Origin: a virus
Strand: one strand, 5' to 3'
IMG/VR virus record: IMGVR_UViG_3300042731_009617
Location: 1 to 35,919 of that record
Length of the DNA: 35,919 nucleotides
The position numbers and the translations under genes were made by a program. The notes beneath the pieces were generated by a model. The model made no database searches, had not been told where the DNA came from, and was given only the letters and a program-made list of their open reading frames with translations. The first letter of the stretch is position 1; the number at the start of each line of letters is the position of its first letter. Positions 14,331-23,459 of the stretch are shown here, piece by piece.

Positions 14331-14455
14331 ATCTTCGGGGCTCGTTGGGGACCGCGTAAGAATTACGAATCTCTGATATAAGGAGACTATAAAAGGAATT
14401 TGTGATATAGTTTCTTTTTATTTTAATGAAAGCTAGGCCTTCGGGAGGAATAAGC
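14331..14455 (+). promoter_or_regulatory. AT-rich leader with candidate promoter for the nuclease gene
   Basis: A break in the otherwise gapless operon, clearly richer in A and T than its flanks. A possible promoter is TTACGA with a TATAAA 19 bases further on, near 14362-14393. A second TTGTGATATAG sequence follows near 14399-14410. Neither is a strong match. The ribosome site GGAGGAAT stands before the ATG at 14456. The island gene probably has its own transcription. Confidence 0.35.
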
Positions 14456-15733
14456 ATGAGTATTGTAAGCATCAAAGACGCTGCCGAAAATATTCTCAAC
14501 CGTATCGAGACCGTTAAGGGAAGAGGTGAGGAAGCCACAAAACAGGCAATGGTTCTTCCGATGCTTGATGCGCTTGGCTACGACATTTGGAATCCAGATG
14601 AAGTATGTCCAGAGTATGAGGCGGATGTTGCGGTAAAGAAAGGGGGGCAGAAGGAAAAGGTTGACTATGCTATACTCCTCGGAGGTGAACCTCGGATTTT
14701 TATTGAAGTAAAAAGCGCCGGAGAACCTCTCGACGGACATCAGGGACAACTGAAACGTTATTTTATGTCTACGTCCAGCGTTTCTCTCGGTATCCTTACA
14801 AACGGTGTTGAATACCGGTTTTTCACGGACACTGGCGAGCCCAATATTCAGGATGACGATCCTTTTCATATTGTGAGGCTTGAAGATGTTGATCAAGGTC
14901 TAGAAGTAATGGCTCGGTTTCAACGCGATGTTTTTTCTCCCGCTTCAATCAGAGAGTACGCTACAGAGCTCACGTATACGGCGAAGATAGTGAGATTTTT
15001 AAAAAGCGAATTGGATGTTCAGGATAAAGAATTGGGCGATGAATTTGTAGGCTGGATTTTGAGGAGTCCCGGGATGTACGAAGGTCGAGTCATGCAGAGC
15101 GTTATCGAGAGATTCAGGCCAATCGCGAAGACAGCTCTTCAACGCGTTCTAAGCAGCATCATCCGGCGTATCGTGACAGAAATCGACGCCAAGGTGGGCG
15201 CTGGAGGTAAAACCGAAGGTGAGCCTGAGAGTGTCGGCGAGAAGATAGAGACATCTGAATCGCTTACCGAACAGAATCTTGAGACCGATGACCAGGGACC
15301 GGCAAAATCGCCAGGCCGTGAGATTGTCACAACTGAGGAGGAGTTGGAGTGTTTCGCGATAGTGAAACGTATTTTTGATAACTCAATCTATTCTGAAAAA
15401 ACCATTTATAATCCGGCTCGAAAACAGGACTTGCCACTGGAAATTGGATACAAAGACACAACCGGATATTTCGGCATTTATTTCAACAAGCCATCTTGGT
15501 GGAACATGCGTATTTTCCTTGATGGAAAGACAAAATGGGTCGGTTTTGATATTGACCCAGAAGAGGGTGACAAGTTACTACCGGACGGCTTTACACGTCT
15601 ACCGCCATGCGCTTTTGCTGATTTCCGCGTACAGGTCAATTCTCCTCAAGACCTTCTCACGCTAAGCGAAATCGTCCACGCCTGCTTTGAGAAGACAATC
15701 CAGGACAGAGAAAAGCTCAGAGAAAAACAGTAA
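14456..15733 (+). CDS. Stand-alone type I restriction HsdR N-terminal nuclease-like protein
   Basis: 425 residues. Residues about 10-130 match the nuclease domain at the front of HsdR subunits (type I restriction, HSDR_N): QAMVLPMLDALGYDIWNPDEV, then Asp70 (KVDYAI), Glu84 and Lys86 (FIEVKSAG) as a PD-(D/E)xK active site, and GQLKRYF. There is no helicase motor, so it is a separate nuclease, followed by a helical region, a Glu/Thr-rich linker (about 255-300) and an unrecognised C-terminal domain (KIYNP, WWNMRIFL). No HsdM/HsdS is nearby. It may be a defence or superinfection-exclusion nuclease. The gene is more AT-rich than its neighbours and stands alone between operons. ATG at 14456 has GGAGGAAT before it. 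Confidence 0.8.
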   Translation: MSIVSIKDAAENILNRIETVKGRGEEATKQAMVLPMLDALGYDIWNPDEVCPEYEADVAVKKGGQKEKVDYAILLGGEPRIFIEVKSAGEPLDGHQGQLKRYFMSTSSVSLGILTNGVEYRFFTDTGEPNIQDDDPFHIVRLEDVDQGLEVMARFQRDVFSPASIREYATELTYTAKIVRFLKSELDVQDKELGDEFVGWILRSPGMYEGRVMQSVIERFRPIAKTALQRVLSSIIRRIVTEIDAKVGAGGKTEGEPESVGEKIETSESLTEQNLETDDQGPAKSPGREIVTTEEELECFAIVKRIFDNSIYSEKTIYNPARKQDLPLEIGYKDTTGYFGIYFNKPSWWNMRIFLDGKTKWVGFDIDPEEGDKLLPDGFTRLPPCAFADFRVQVNSPQDLLTLSEIVHACFEKTIQDREKLREKQ

Positions 15734-15804: not shown

Positions 15805-15828
15805 GGCGCCGCCTCTCCTGGCGCCTTT
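15805..15828. terminator. GGCGCC hairpin between convergent genes
   Basis: GGCGCC at 15805-15810 pairs with GGCGCC at 15820-15825, followed by TTT on the plus strand. It sits between the stop of the nuclease gene and the convergent PIN gene, where a bidirectional terminator is expected. The T run is short, so termination would be weak. Confidence 0.4.
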
Positions 15829-16316
15829 CATCGTTGACGAAGGTCTCGAAGTTGCTGGTCGACTTCTTTCCATGGAAGCCTTCGATTTCTGTTCTTCATT
15901 TCCAGGTATGCTGTTTCGAGACGATCAATCGTGGTGATCTTCTCTAAAACAAGTCTCTCACAAAGCCAAAGAGTCCCCCTTACGTCAACTCCTTCGGCCT
16001 CGGCGGCCGTCCGTAGATCCTTGTCTCCGGTGAGAAGACGGCATCGCTCCTGTTCAGCGAGTGCCAAGGCGGCGAGATCGAGGCGGCTTGGTCTCCTGTA
16101 GACAGCAGCAAGCTCCGCTGTTCTTTGGATCCCTTGTGACGTCAGCTCCATCAGCAGAAGACCAAGGCGAAGTAGGCCTTCGTGTTGCTCCTGGAGCTCT
16201 TCTGCGTACAGAAGATCCGGAACCCCAATGGTATCTGGAAGAGAGAAGAGCTCATTGGTGAGCCCGCCTATCTCGAAATCGATGAAGATGTTGGCGTCAC
16301 TGATTAACAGCGACAT
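15828..16316 (-). CDS. PIN-domain toxin-like ribonuclease
   Basis: 162 residues with a PIN nuclease fold. Acidic metal-binding residues are Asp7 (LISDANIFIDF), Glu40 (LLYAEELQEQ), Asp80 (SRLDLAALALA) and Asp98 (LLTGDKDLRTAA). PIN toxins cut RNA, often tRNA or mRNA, with Mg2+ or Mn2+. Its start overlaps by 20 bases the end of the upstream XRE-ImmA/IrrE gene on the same strand, so the two form one operon. XRE-COG2856 with PIN is a recognised toxin-antitoxin arrangement. The target is unknown. Confidence 0.85.
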   Translation of the reverse strand: MSLLISDANIFIDFEIGGLTNELFSLPDTIGVPDLLYAEELQEQHEGLLRLGLLLMELTSQGIQRTAELAAVYRRPSRLDLAALALAEQERCRLLTGDKDLRTAAEAEGVDVRGTLWLCERLVLEKITTIDRLETAYLEMKNRNRRLPWKEVDQQLRDLRQR

Positions 16317-17364
16317 GATGACTCTCGATTGTGAGGCGTGCGCGGAATTCGCCGAGTGACAACGACATCAGCTCCGCGGCCTTCGACATCGATATCATCT
16401 CCTCGGCGAAGGCATGCATCACGAGCTGTTCGAAAAGGTGTGGGCATTCCGAGGGGAACGGATCGCCGGGTTCCTTTTTACGCCAGCCTTTGCTTGAAAA
16501 CATCCGTATCAAGATCTCGGCAGTATTCTGCGTAATCACTCCGACGTCCCGTGCGCGGTACACCCAAGCGAGCATACTGAGCCCGAATTCGTGTTTGAGC
16601 TGGTAGAGCTCGCGCCATTCGATATGGTTTCGACGATTTCCAAGCTCGTTGATCACGGCCCCTTTTGGAGCGAGAAATGCACCTGCAAAACGATTGCAGG
16701 CGACCTCGTTGTCAATGCCATCGGTGAGATGCTCTCCGAGGACAAGGTGACCGAGTTCGTGGGCAAGTGTGAAACGTTGACGGTCCCCGGGCCAGCCGGC
16801 GCCAACCACTATCAGGGGAAAGCCATTCACCCGGGCGGCGAGCCCGTCGAATTTGCTGTAACCATCCGCATCGGTCACGAGCACAAAGATGCCGCGCTCC
16901 TCAAGTAGGTCGGCGAGGTTGGGAATGGCATCGCGTCCGAGTTGCCAGGCATCGCGCACCTCGAGGGCCACCTGCTCCACCTGGTCCAGGGAAGCAATGG
17001 GCCCAGCCAAGTTCACCGGGTTTTCAAAAGCCGTCACAGGCGGTTTGGGAAAGAGCGAGAGGAGCTCTATGAAGCGTTCCACGTTATCGAGCACATCGGC
17101 CTTAATTCGTTCGAGCTGCTTTTTCCCGAGCGAAGATCGCTTGCGATATTCCAGTTCGCCAAGTGTTACAGTATCTGGTCGGAAGAAGAATTCTATAGGA
17201 GTGTTGAACGCTCGGGCCAACTGGATGAGCGACTTCGACGTGGGTGTCGCCTCTCCACGCTCGAACTTCGAGATAGCCATAGCACTCAGCTGGGCACGCT
17301 CCCCGGCGGCCCGTAGTGATAGCCCTGCAGCGGTTCGAGCTCGCTTTATTCGTTCGCCAATCAT
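16297..17364 (-). CDS. XRE-family regulator with ImmA/IrrE metallopeptidase domain
   Basis: 355 residues. The N-terminal XRE helix-turn-helix is at about 4-60 (ERIKRARTAAGLSLRAAGERA, ISKFERGEATPT). An ImmA/IrrE-type peptidase domain follows, with zinc ligands His202 and His206 in HELGH and likely Glu220 in DNEVACNRFAGAFL. It would act as the antitoxin and autorepressor of the PIN partner, and the protease part could cleave itself or a regulator on a signal. ImmA-like proteins also cleave phage and ICE repressors, so a role in lysogeny control is possible. An inverted repeat at its promoter supports autoregulation. Confidence 0.88.
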   Translation of the reverse strand: MIGERIKRARTAAGLSLRAAGERAQLSAMAISKFERGEATPTSKSLIQLARAFNTPIEFFFRPDTVTLGELEYRKRSSLGKKQLERIKADVLDNVERFIELLSLFPKPPVTAFENPVNLAGPIASLDQVEQVALEVRDAWQLGRDAIPNLADLLEERGIFVLVTDADGYSKFDGLAARVNGFPLIVVGAGWPGDRQRFTLAHELGHLVLGEHLTDGIDNEVACNRFAGAFLAPKGAVINELGNRRNHIEWRELYQLKHEFGLSMLAWVYRARDVGVITQNTAEILIRMFSSKGWRKKEPGDPFPSECPHLFEQLVMHAFAEEMISMSKAAELMSLSLGEFRARLTIESHHVAVNQ

Positions 17365-17435: not shown

Positions 17436-17860
17436 TAGCCAAGATGAAAAAGGTACTGTGGAGGGGGGGGTAGTAGGGCGCCATGTTTGACTGGGTACGG
17501 CCCGCCGCGCACTGTCAGAGGTTTTTTTTTCGATTAACCTGTTTTGACATTGAATATTTATACAAATGCATCGCTATCCTTTTAATATCACTTCACTTTA
17601 CGACCTTCCCGGTTTGAGGAGTTAACTCTCCGGTTAACCGTGGTTAACCAAGCTGGTGAGCCCGGGTTAATTTCTTGGTTAACCGGCGGCGAGCCCTACC
17701 TTACCCCGGCGATTGGCCCGGGCGGACCGGGATCCCGTCGGTGAGCTATCGTCCACCTCGGCGTCGGCCCGGGCAATCGGTTGGGGAAGAACGCCGGTGG
17801 GCGAACTCGACTACCCCGGCACTGCTAGCGGACCAAACAGACTAGGCCTGTCTGGGCCAC
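17436..17860. other. Gene-free regulatory region with repeated GTTAAC palindromes
   Basis: No credible gene. From 17619 to 17684 four palindromes share the GTTAAC core: GAGTTAACTC 17619-17628, CGGTTAACCG 17631-17640, TGGTTAACCA 17641-17650, and GGTTAACC 17677-17684, with a half-like GGGTTAAT at 17664-17671. Their centres are 12, 10, 23 and 12 bases apart, close to whole turns of the helix, as for a cooperative operator or iteron array. There is also G8 at 17463-17470 and T9 at 17522-17530. GCCCGGGC occurs twice (about 17718 and 17768) with flanking GATTG/AATC in opposite senses. A short hairpin, CAGAC/GTCTG near 17838-17854, could weakly end the SecB-like operon. Confidence 0.5.
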
Positions 17861-18328
17861 TCATTCTTCATTGGTTTTTTCCGACGGAAGAATCCAAGGC
17901 AGCGTGTATGGTTTCATGCAAAGGCGACTCATACCGTCAAGGACCTGCTGGCGAAAAATTGGCCACAATGTATGTACCAACTGTCTTTCTGAGAAGAAGC
18001 TTCGTGTTTCCTTATCTTTCCATAGTTCTCTGAATTCTTCAGCATCTTTCAAGCGAAACACGACGAGGAAAACCGTGGTCTGTGTAAACAAGTCTTCCTC
18101 TTCGAATTTTAGAGATAATTCGTATTTCGGCCGAAAAATAATAAAAGCATCGCCGTTCACAAACACAGGATCATCGTCAGCTATCGCTTTGATAAAAAAG
18201 ACGTTGATCTCCGTCTTTGGATCAGGGGCATCACCACGTTGTTCGGAAATCAATTTCGTCGGACGTATCTCCGCTAAGTCCATACATTGAAGCAGTCTCA
18301 TGTTATTATTTGTGATATTCTGGTTCAT
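17861..18328 (-). CDS. secB: SecB-like chaperone of a TAC module
   Basis: 155 residues of the SecB fold. The C-terminal helix and following segment LVHTLWPIFRQQVLDGMSR then YTLPWI correspond to the conserved SecB end (PxxR near the helix, then the Leu-Pro-rich tail), and the middle strands (INVFFIKAIADDDPVFVNG, FIIFRPKYELSLKFEEED) fit the beta-sheet. Its start overlaps the antitoxin stop as ATGA, on the same strand as MqsR and MqsA. In toxin-antitoxin-chaperone systems SecB-like proteins protect an unstable antitoxin from degradation and aggregation. The codon use is AT-rich compared with the phage backbone. The SecB call is by motif, not by alignment. Confidence 0.75.
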   Translation of the reverse strand: MNQNITNNNMRLLQCMDLAEIRPTKLISEQRGDAPDPKTEINVFFIKAIADDDPVFVNGDAFIIFRPKYELSLKFEEEDLFTQTTVFLVVFRLKDAEEFRELWKDKETRSFFSERQLVHTLWPIFRQQVLDGMSRLCMKPYTLPWILPSEKTNEE

Positions 18329-19044
18329 ATTGCGTGCAAATCTTTTTTGTTATCCAAGTTAAGTATGTGAGCGTTTTCCGTTAGGTTCCATTTGGCTTCT
18401 GCCACCAGATACGACGGAACCGGAGTACAACTGTCAAACACCGCCATGCGCATGCCTGACTCGTTGGAAGCTTGCGTTCCGTAGTGAACTTCTTTGGCAT
18501 CAACAGATTTTATTACGCATATGGTGACAGAGTCGGACTGGGAGCACGGGAATTGAAGTTTTTCCCATGTACTCTCACCTGCGACAAAGCTGTTCGAGCT
18601 CTCAACTTTTTTTCTCTGTCGAAGGCCGATTCGAGACTTGTTTTCGTTATATATCGCTTGAAAAACATAAGGGTTTTCAGCTATTTTCAGGAGCAAACGG
18701 TGTGTCGCGTCTGGGGTGGCACCCTGCTCGTACTTGTTCATGGTCAATTCGCCGAAGCCAAGAAGCAACCCAAACGCTTTCTGACTTGCATTATACTTTT
18801 TACGAAGTTTAACTAGATCATCCTTGGTTGGCGTCCGATATAGTTGGTCATACGCCTCTCGAGCTCGCTCCAAGTTGTGGTCAAGTGTCTCGGCGGTATC
18901 GAATTCCTCACCACAATGATTACAGCGATATGAATGGGATTGAAACCTGATCTCTTTCCCTTTCATTAGGATCTGTTTTTCTTGGCTCAGGATTTCCACT
19001 TTCCGTGTGGCTTCACACTTTGGGCATGACATCATCTCAGACAT
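18325..19044 (-). CDS. mqsA: MqsA-type antitoxin with long C-terminal extension
   Basis: 239 residues against about 131 for E. coli MqsA. The N-terminal zinc domain has Cys7 and Cys10 (SCPKCEA) and Cys41 and Cys44 (RCNHCGEEF). The DNA-binding helix-turn-helix spans about 75-125 (LRKKYNASQKAFGLLLGFGEL, NKYEQG). Residues about 135-239 are an extra domain with no match to classical MqsA. In chaperone-dependent antitoxins a C-terminal chaperone-addiction (ChAD) segment makes the protein need SecB; this extension is the natural candidate, although it is longer than usual. Its start overlaps the toxin stop by 13 bases, and its stop overlaps the chaperone start. Confidence 0.85.
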   Translation of the reverse strand: MSEMMSCPKCEATRKVEILSQEKQILMKGKEIRFQSHSYRCNHCGEEFDTAETLDHNLERAREAYDQLYRTPTKDDLVKLRKKYNASQKAFGLLLGFGELTMNKYEQGATPDATHRLLLKIAENPYVFQAIYNENKSRIGLRQRKKVESSNSFVAGESTWEKLQFPCSQSDSVTICVIKSVDAKEVHYGTQASNESGMRMAVFDSCTPVPSYLVAEAKWNLTENAHILNLDNKKDLHAI

Positions 19045-19388
19045 TGTGTTTTTCCTTCTTCATGAAAGGACATGACCGCGCCCTCTTCTCCGCTGTCTGG
19101 GTCTGTACAAATCTTCAGCTTGATATAAATATCAATTTTCAAATCTTGATGTGGATACTTAAATATCATCACTGTGCCCTCCGAACCGTTTCGATCTCTT
19201 TGAGGGCCACTATCGCAGTGCGTTTCTTCAAGTCGCTCTATCACGTCAAACGCGTCATCTGACGTCAAATCGTACTCGAGCAGAAACATCACCGTCTTGT
19301 TGTTTCTCGGTTTGAATTTGACCTTTTTTTGTTTTAAAAGCCTCCTCAGTCGAGACAAAAACAGTGAGATTCCAAACGAACCACTCAT
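19032..19388 (-). CDS. mqsR: MqsR-family mRNA interferase toxin
   Basis: 118 residues from the ATG at 19388 (a GTG at 19403 would add 5). The front helix (LSRLRRLLKQKKVKFKPRN) and the end of the protein, IDIYIKLKIC...AVMSFHEEGK, match the MqsR family pattern of a YIK strand followed by a SFxE strand. MqsR is a RelE-fold ribonuclease that cuts mRNA at specific codons. It is the first gene of the operon, before its antitoxin, as in E. coli. Neither start has a strong ribosome site; the -10 candidate is so close that a very short leader is possible. Members are usually near 98-110 residues. Confidence 0.82.
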   Translation of the reverse strand: MSGSFGISLFLSRLRRLLKQKKVKFKPRNNKTVMFLLEYDLTSDDAFDVIERLEETHCDSGPQRDRNGSEGTVMIFKYPHQDLKIDIYIKLKICTDPDSGEEGAVMSFHEEGKTQCLR

Positions 19389-19408
19389 TTTTATTATACC
19401 CACTAACT

Positions 19409-19424
19409 GGTATTGTACAATACC
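19409..19424 (-). promoter_or_regulatory. Perfect 16-bp palindrome at the TAC operon promoter
   Basis: GGTATTGTACAATACC reads the same on both strands and lies immediately before the MqsR gene. On the minus strand it contains TACAAT, a good -10 match, and a second TATAAT follows 14 bases before the ATG at 19388. Binding of the MqsA-type protein here would hide the promoter, as in other mqsRA operons, which are also controlled at palindromes. Confidence 0.75.
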
Positions 19425-22439: not shown

Positions 22440-23459
22440 CTACTTTCGTCTTCGGTGTTTTGGTTGCTTGGGTCTGGTCTTGATTTCTTGGGGTCGCTGT
22501 ATAGAAGCTGGCTGTGGTTTTGCTGCTAATGATTGGACAACATTTTTTACCCAGATTTTATCGTGGTTGGTTATAACAATCTTAGTAGTAGGTGATCTTT
22601 CAAACAAAATGGTCATCAAATGGTAGGATGTTAATACTTCATCTTGAAGATCCTGGCTGTCTTCCAAGTTTTCAATGTTTAGCTGCTGCTTAAGCGCTTC
22701 TTCCCGATCAATTCGATGCCCATGTATTTTATGTTCTTCTGTGTCGTTGAAGTACTTCGCTGTTTTTTCGGCAAGTTCTTCTGCATTATTTTGTCCTGCA
22801 AACATTCGGTCTTTGAGCCATTTTGTAACCATCTGTTCCCCATACTCAAGAACATTTTTTGATTCTTGAAGCAAAGATGGCCCCAGGGTTTGAAGTACTG
22901 GCGCCCAAAGATGGGCTTGTTTTATATCTTCAGAAAGTTCCTTACGAGCCCGCTCGAATTGTTGATGTATTGCCCCTGCTGGCACTGATCTTCCCCCTAA
23001 ACCAATTTGGGGATCGATTGGTCCTAACTGACTCTGTTTGCCCATGATGATTTTGTTTGCAGCCAGAGAAATCATAGTTCCAGCGGACATAGCATAGGTT
23101 GGTATTATTACTTCGATGTAATCAAATTTGCTATGCAAGTATTCAACAAGTGTCTCAGTGGCTGCAGCCTGTCCACCCGGAGTATGCAAAATTAACGTCA
23201 GTCCTTTGTCCCAATTCATCCCATGGAGAGCCGACATGAAACCGTTTATTTCTTCCAATGTTATCTGTATATCATAAGCTGGAACCATCGGTTTTTGCAG
23301 AAAAGAAGAAGCGTAGAAGATTACGTTGCTACCTTTTCGAAGGTTTGAAATATTGTTCAGAGTTTGTTGTTGTTTTTGGTTAAGCCAACTAGCTTTCTTT
23401 TCATCCGGCTGTTTGTCCATCTCTCGGATGAACTCATTCCACGCAGGTTTTTCTGGCAT
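22440..23459 (-). CDS. SDH-type (ClpP/SppA-like) serine protease
   Basis: 339 residues of the SDH proteinase family (serine dehydrogenase-like ClpP-fold proteases). Conserved parts are HTPGG (92-96), the nucleophile Ser125 in YAMSAGTMISLAA, and the LGPIDPQ block (145-151). The last 50 residues are Pro/Lys/Arg-rich and unstructured. No signal peptide or membrane span is seen, so it acts in the cytoplasm or at the membrane face. It starts 3 bases after the stop of a 60-residue gene on the same strand. The AT-rich composition and opposite strand, between terminase and portal, mark it as cargo. Anti-phage or superinfection-exclusion activity is an inference. Confidence 0.82.
   Translation of the reverse strand: MPEKPAWNEFIREMDKQPDEKKASWLNQKQQQTLNNISNLRKGSNVIFYASSFLQKPMVPAYDIQITLEEINGFMSALHGMNWDKGLTLILHTPGGQAAATETLVEYLHSKFDYIEVIIPTYAMSAGTMISLAANKIIMGKQSQLGPIDPQIGLGGRSVPAGAIHQQFERARKELSEDIKQAHLWAPVLQTLGPSLLQESKNVLEYGEQMVTKWLKDRMFAGQNNAEELAEKTAKYFNDTEEHKIHGHRIDREEALKQQLNIENLEDSQDLQDEVLTSYHLMTILFERSPTTKIVITNHDKIWVKNVVQSLAAKPQPASIQRPQEIKTRPKQPKHRRRK

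What the first reader, a model, noticed from the sequence alone, without database searches (positions are those of the whole stretch)
17861..19424. Phage-borne MqsR-MqsA-SecB toxin-antitoxin-chaperone module
Three overlapping minus-strand genes read as an MqsR-family toxin, an MqsA-type antitoxin of 239 residues (about 100 longer than the classical one) and a SecB-like protein. Overlaps are 13 and 4 bases. Known: TAC systems couple a SecB-like chaperone to an antitoxin that needs it through a C-terminal ChAD segment. Inferred: the extra C-terminal domain here is a ChAD, and the phage uses the module as addiction or superinfection defence. Finding it inside a phage between early genes and terminase is unusual.
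Basis: partly seen in the sequence, partly recalled or inferred. Interest (0 to 1): 0.85.

Follow-up and report, generated by a model that had tools for sequence, protein, structure and literature searches.

The report
Phage-borne toxin-antitoxin-chaperone operon
A virus that infects bacteria carries a complete three-gene 'sleeper' operon (an RNA-cutting toxin, its antitoxin, and a SecB-like chaperone the antitoxin is predicted to depend on) of a kind already known from bacteria, where it can shut a cell down when another virus attacks.

Summary
Three overlapping minus-strand genes encode an MqsR-fold toxin (AlphaFold model; only convincing PDB match is E. coli MqsR, TM 0.63/0.78, E 4e-3), an MqsA-family antitoxin with a ~90-residue extension, and a SecB-fold protein that no SecB sequence model finds but whose best structural match is the M. 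tuberculosis TAC chaperone Rv1957. The same trio occurs at six bacterial loci (five genomes) sampled from the Spirochaetota, all sharing a palindromic operator GGTATT-N4-(A/G)ATACC 18-20 nt before the toxin start (ATG 19388, not GTG 19403). More distant chaperone relatives sit behind HigBA-like pairs (four loci) and a HicAB-like pair (one). The extension is highly variable but keeps an invariant tryptophan (W160, W-x-x-L), as expected of a chaperone-addiction segment. So it is an MqsR-MqsA-SecB TAC, a kind already described and tested (V. cholerae RC385; E. coli C496_10 MqsRAC blocks T2). New points: its carrier, a temperate sheath-bearing phage; a chaperone subfamily missed by Pfam; and an antitoxin ending in -HAI where all complete bacterial relatives examined end in A or S. 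Superinfection defence is likely but untested.

The parts
19409..19424 (.). Palindromic operator GGTATTGTACAATACC, immediately upstream of the toxin start
   Evidence: 0.04 expected at up to 3 mismatches; motif GGTATT-N4-(A/G)ATACC 18-20 nt before the toxin start in all six bacterial trios, and upstream of the L010 antitoxin
19394..19399 (-). TATAAT -10-like hexamer a few bases before the toxin ATG; mRNA would be leaderless or nearly so (inferred)
   Evidence: sequence; TATATT or TATGGT at the same place in L153-L156. Not reported by the consensus scan, as the -35 match is poor
19032..19388 (-). MqsR-fold toxin, 118 aa from ATG 19388 (reader: GTG 19403)
   Evidence: Pfam MqsR_toxin matched by 8 of 8 relatives, best E 4.3e-4, window copy below the cut-off; AF2 pLDDT 86, only convincing PDB match 3hi2 MqsR
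18325..19044 (-). MqsA-family antitoxin, 239 aa: zinc ribbon (C7, C10, C41, C44) + HTH in residues 1-~148
   Evidence: NCBIfam TIGR03830 82.3 bits (cut-off 61.8), Pfam MqsA 30.5 (cut-off 30); PDB MqsA 3gn5 by profile E 4.4e-7
18325..18600 (-). C-terminal extension of the antitoxin (residues ~149-239), putative chaperone-addiction segment containing W160; ends -HAI
   Evidence: 11-22% identity over 82 aligned columns against 47-54% in residues 1-148 of the full-length relatives; W160 invariant; no known domain
17861..18328 (-). SecB-fold TAC chaperone, 155 aa
   Evidence: AF2 pLDDT 75 (best of five, others 36-48); Foldseek top 19 hits all SecB, best 5mtw Rv1957 E 2e-7; hhalign to SecB P 5e-4, better than all 60 shuffled controls

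Best explanation
It is an MqsR-MqsA-SecB type toxin-antitoxin-chaperone (TAC) operon carried as an opposite-strand accessory module of a temperate sheathed-tail phage. Shown by sequence or model: gene identities, shared operator, conserved trio. Inferred from characterised TACs: the antitoxin (alone or with toxin) represses the operon at the palindrome; the SecB-like chaperone binds the antitoxin extension around W160, keeping the antitoxin folded and stable; when newly made structural protein of an infecting phage competes for the chaperone, the antitoxin is degraded, the MqsR-like RNase cuts mRNA, and the cell stops supporting the infection. The module has its own promoter on the strand opposite the late genes, so it can work in a lysogen as superinfection defence, with prophage maintenance as a by-product.
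For: Toxin fold MqsR; MqsA-family antitoxin; SecB fold closest to a TAC chaperone; complete trio at six spirochaete loci, and the chaperone subfamily behind HigBA-like (L160-L163) and HicAB-like (L187) pairs; hypervariable extension with invariant W160, cf. Mtb ChAD 104-EVPTWHRLSSYRG-116 with W108 buried in the chaperone (PMC6377645); conserved operator; AT-rich block (44% GC against 57-59%) beside other accessory genes of the phage; E. coli MqsRAC blocks T2 and CmdTAC senses phage capsid protein (PMC9519451, PMC10783111, PMC11618068).
Against: No experiment. The toxin's family match is below Pfam's cut-off, and the conserved Tyr of its relatives' Y-x-x-GP motif is Cys here. The antitoxin lacks the A/S-ending tail. 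Similarity of the extension to relatives is near chance apart from two W motifs. The chaperone model rests on a 2-sequence alignment, and four of the five models were poor. The trigger and the host are unknown.
Confidence: 0.75

Rival explanations
1. Addiction only: the TAC works as a TA, but its benefit is post-segregational maintenance of the (pro)phage, not sensing of other phages.
For: TA modules are commonly reported in prophages (PMC12619734); integrase present; own promoter and operator.
Against: CmdTAC, MqsRAC and HigBAC, tested against phages, were antiviral (PMC9519451, PMC11618068, PMC11980606); the chaperone adds a sensor that plain addiction does not need (inference).
Confidence: 0.2
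2. Counter-defence: the phage uses its antitoxin and chaperone to neutralise or saturate a similar TAC of the host, and the toxin gene is a passenger.
For: Extra chaperone abolishes defence by CmdTAC and MqsRAC (PMC9519451); the L010 locus keeps operator, antitoxin and chaperone with no toxin ORF; the window antitoxin lacks the usual A/S-ending tail and so might be longer-lived.
Against: The phage copy keeps an intact toxin with all five invariant residues of the wider family; the phage's nearest named terminase relatives are from gammaproteobacterial phages, while the TAC relatives found are spirochaetal (no proteobacterial genomes could be searched).
Confidence: 0.12
3. Decaying cargo: a recently acquired bacterial TAC drifting towards loss in the phage.
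For: AT-rich against the phage; C for a conserved Y in the toxin; -HAI end; divergent extension.
Against: All three frames intact with tight overlaps; operator perfect; invariant toxin and antitoxin residues kept.
Confidence: 0.08
4. Chimeric assembly, or host DNA misassigned to the virus record.
For: The record is a virus contig of unknown completeness classed as linear; composition of the block differs.
Against: The terminase genes begin about 280 bp away on one side and a minor tail gene lies 4.9 kb away on the other, in one contig; two related phages also have opposite-strand genes just upstream of the terminase.
Confidence: 0.05

Closest known systems
MqsR-MqsA-SecB TAC (V. cholerae RC385 Vcho-TAC, PMC5105189; E. 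coli C496_10 MqsRAC, PMC9519451, PMC10783111)
   Same: Gene set toxin-antitoxin-SecB-like chaperone; MqsR-type toxin; MqsA-family antitoxin with a variable C-terminal extension
   Different: In a phage; extension about 90 residues (Vcho ChAD tested as residues 136-176); chaperone not recognised by Pfam SecB.
M. tuberculosis HigB1-HigA1-Rv1957 TAC (5mtw, PMC6377645)
   Same: Chaperone fold, best structural match; W-x-x-L motif in the extension; a second W-containing segment (AEAKW here, 137-WARHISVR in Mtb)
   Different: HigBA rather than MqsRA toxin and antitoxin; about 20% identity in the chaperone
CmdTAC (PMC11618068)
   Same: Three-gene TAC architecture with a SecB-like chaperone as third gene
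   Different: ADP-ribosyltransferase toxin, small unrelated antitoxin
MqsR-like toxin with ZnR-HTH-Panacea (SocA/DUF4065) antitoxin (PanAT, PMC8832971; here L011, L009)
   Same: Same toxin family and antitoxin N-terminal domain (34-35% identity to L011); L011 has a similar palindrome at its toxin start
   Different: Panacea domain in place of the ChAD-like extension, and no chaperone gene seen

Membership tests
[quoted passage not shown]
   SecB fold, best match Rv1957 E 2e-7, TM 0.69/0.77; 4-base overlap with the antitoxin gene
MqsRA-type TAC | Antitoxin has a C-terminal extension beyond the classical antitoxin | tested here: met
   239 aa against 131-133 for E. coli MqsA chains; the matching region ends at about residue 126
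MqsRA-type TAC | The extension binds the chaperone and makes the antitoxin depend on it (ChAD) | tested here: inconclusive
   Invariant W160 in W-x-x-L and hypervariability fit; binding and dependence cannot be tested by sequence
MqsRA-type TAC | Toxin is neutralised only when antitoxin and chaperone are both present | not testable with these tools
   needs expression in a laboratory strain
MqsR toxin (PF15723) | Score above Pfam's cut-off | tested here: not met
   13.6-13.8 bits against 26.2; 8 of 8 relatives match, best E 4.3e-4. So it is filed as a divergent relative by fold, not as a curated PF15723 member
MqsR toxin (PF15723) | MqsR fold | tested here: met
   pLDDT 86; 3hi2_B MqsR prob 1.00, TM 0.63/0.78, E 4.2e-3, next hit prob 0.20
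MqsA antitoxin | Zinc ribbon with two Cys pairs + HTH, above curated cut-offs | tested here: met
   TIGR03830 82.3 against 61.8 bits; PF15731 30.5 against 30
SecB (PF02556) | Score in the Pfam SecB model | tested here: not met
   no SecB hit for any of 11 members; relation shown by structure and profile-profile comparison only
PanAT (Panacea) TA | Panacea/DUF4065 domain in the antitoxin | tested here: not met
   no such hit
CmdTAC | ADP-ribosyltransferase toxin | tested here: not met
   toxin has the MqsR fold

The most novel reading that the evidence does not exclude
A phage-tuned TAC: the phage copy has replaced the A/S-ending antitoxin tail and most of the addiction segment, so that the trigger is rewired and the phage's own structural proteins, made during its lytic cycle, do not set off the toxin while those of competing phages do.
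Probability: 0.12. Interest if true: 0.65.

Novelty: new member of a known kind. Interest (0 to 1): 0.45.

Why it matters
TACs sense phage structural proteins through their chaperone. A TAC inside a phage raises a sharp, testable question: how does the phage induce and build its own particles without triggering its own sensor? The set of relatives gathered here (MqsRA, HigBA-like and HicAB-like TACs sharing one chaperone subfamily that Pfam SecB misses) also suggests that TACs are under-counted by standard annotation.

Tried and rejected
Direct family searches of the 155-aa protein (Pfam, NCBIfam, PDB by sequence) found nothing, so its SecB identity rests on relatives and fold. Single-sequence scans of viral and genome contigs with the antitoxin or chaperone found no relatives. 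Scanning viral contigs for the operator gave 36 sites, about as many as chance would give by my estimate; the chaperone profile matched none of those loci. CmdTAC, PanAT and plain two-gene MqsRA were considered and rejected (membership test). A compensated frameshift in the antitoxin extension was looked for by eye; no other frame resembled the relatives. A spirochaete host was tested by the terminase: best spirochaete match 35% identity against 55% for a Shewanella phage, so the host is not shown to be a spirochaete. Chaperone relatives searched in other phyla: 0 of 297 (phylum of a Flavobacterium), 2 of 300 weak (phylum of a Halanaerobium), 3 of 133 weak (phylum of a Zixibacteriota genome), 0 of 297 (phylum of an actinomycete); proteobacteria could not be reached. 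The L153-L163 sequences were not used in structure prediction, because that tool's stated list of accepted sources does not name them.

Full report
OBSERVATION. The toxin most likely starts at ATG 19388 (118 aa), because the relatives' first residues align there.

IDENTITY OF THE TOXIN. The Pfam MqsR match is weak in the window (E 0.095), but all eight aligned relatives match the same model, best E 4.3e-4; the window copy is below the curated cut-off. An AlphaFold model from 46 sequences (pLDDT 86, pTM 0.78) has one convincing match in the PDB, E. coli MqsR in 3hi2 (prob 1.00, TM 0.63/0.78, E 4.2e-3); every other hit is far weaker. Residues invariant across the 46-member family (F81, Y93, K95, S112, H114 in the 123-aa numbering) are kept.

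IDENTITY OF THE ANTITOXIN. Residues 1-~148 are an MqsA-type zinc ribbon plus HTH, over the curated cut-offs of Pfam MqsA and NCBIfam TIGR03830. In the full-length relatives 47-54% of these residues are identical to the window, against 11-22% in the aligned extension. The only invariant columns of the extension are S150 and W160; W160 lies in a W-x-x-L motif. The Mtb ChAD peptide is EVPTWHRLSSYRG, its W108 buried in the chaperone (PMC6377645). The resemblance is short and suggestive, not statistical proof: pairwise scores of the extensions are near shuffled controls. A second segment, AEAKW, matches AEARW, VEARW and IEARW in three relatives.

IDENTITY OF THE CHAPERONE. No Pfam, NCBIfam or PDB sequence search of the window protein finds SecB. 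The model (pLDDT 75; only two sequences in the alignment, and the other four models scored 36-48) has the SecB order of elements, and the 19 Foldseek hits with E below 0.001 are all SecB, led by Rv1957 with bound ChAD peptide.

RELATIVES. A genome scan found antitoxin relatives; the nearest, L010 (Spirochaetales MAG), is 53% identical over residues 1-163 and is followed by a chaperone relative. A profile search of 393 genomes of that phylum found chaperones in 11. Six loci in five genomes carry the full trio with antitoxins of 234-235 aa (L153-L156, L158, L159). Four loci (L160-L163) have a HigBA-like pair instead, and L187 (from the phylum of a Zixibacteriota genome) a HicAB-like pair; these pairs were recognised from their sequences and gene order by eye, not by a family search. 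L010 has antitoxin and chaperone but no toxin ORF; L157 showed no partner ORF of 60 aa or more upstream.

OPERATOR. GGTATT-N4-(A/G)ATACC lies 18-20 nt before the toxin start in the window and all six trios, and upstream of the L010 antitoxin; outside TAC loci (and outside loci fetched by that very pattern) only L011, a related TA, has it. This suggests that the operon moved with its promoter and argues for autoregulation; binding is not shown.

TAIL OF THE ANTITOXIN. Every complete bacterial antitoxin of this chaperone family examined here ends in A or S (-GAA, -VAS, -GVA, -LAS, -LAA, -IAA, -LCA, -NAA); the window antitoxin ends -HAI, and the shorter L010 antitoxin -TTG. CmdA's terminal LAA is a ClpXP signal, said to be shared with other TAC antitoxins (PMC11618068). 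What the phage ending does is unknown.

SETTING. The operon lies on the opposite strand just upstream of the terminase genes, in an AT-rich block (44% GC). Beside it are an XRE-ImmA/IrrE gene with a PIN-like partner and an HsdR-N-like gene. Two related phages also have opposite-strand genes of unknown function just upstream of the terminase, so this may be an accessory slot (inference).

MECHANISM AND NOVELTY. In characterised TACs the chaperone protects the antitoxin, and phage structural proteins compete for it: T4 capsid protein for CmdTAC (PMC11618068), the lambda major tail protein for HigBAC (PMC11980606, PMC12593503). MqsRAC of E. coli C496_10 blocks T2 (PMC9519451, PMC10783111). The window module is therefore a new member of a known kind. 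Its phage location, its chaperone subfamily and its antitoxin tail are the new points. Function in the phage is inferred.

Noticed in passing
window 15828-17364 (-): PIN-like gene (sub-cutoff) overlapping an XRE-ImmA/IrrE gene that matches PADLOC RmrA models (E 1.3e-50): a second likely toxin-antitoxin or defence pair beside the TAC.
   Followed up: no
window 14426-15733 (+): 435-aa protein with an HsdR N-terminal (restriction endonuclease-like) domain, AT-rich; possible restriction or defence gene.
   Followed up: no
window 22440-23459 (-): ClpP-like SDH-type serine protease on the opposite strand between terminase and portal, in an AT-rich patch.
   Followed up: no
window ~17600-17700: Several GTTAAC-type repeats between the XRE-ImmA gene and the TAC; possible operators of the XRE-ImmA regulator.
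   Followed up: no
L010 ~917-970 and ~2246-2301: Direct repeats of about 55 bp flank an operator-antitoxin-chaperone unit without a toxin ORF; could be a mobile cassette or a solitary antitoxin-chaperone pair.
   Followed up: partly
L173 2236-3420 (IMG/VR 3300001919_000054): HEPN-like protein (sub-cutoff Pfam E 0.002), small protein ending LAA, and a PF02556 SecB: a TAC-like trio with a possibly new toxin type in another viral contig.
   Followed up: partly
L166, L167, L172: CmdTAC-like trios in Spirochaetota genomes: PARP-like toxin (sub-cutoff in L166 and L167), small protein ending in -AA, PF02556 SecB.
   Followed up: partly
L160-L163, L187: Chaperones of the window's subfamily behind HigBA-like pairs and one HicAB-like pair, antitoxins ending in A or S.
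   Followed up: partly
L183 236-1078; L184 9315-11040: Shewanella phage SppYZU01 and Acinetobacter phage Scuro carry opposite-strand genes of unknown function just upstream of their terminase genes, the slot that holds the TAC here.
   Followed up: partly
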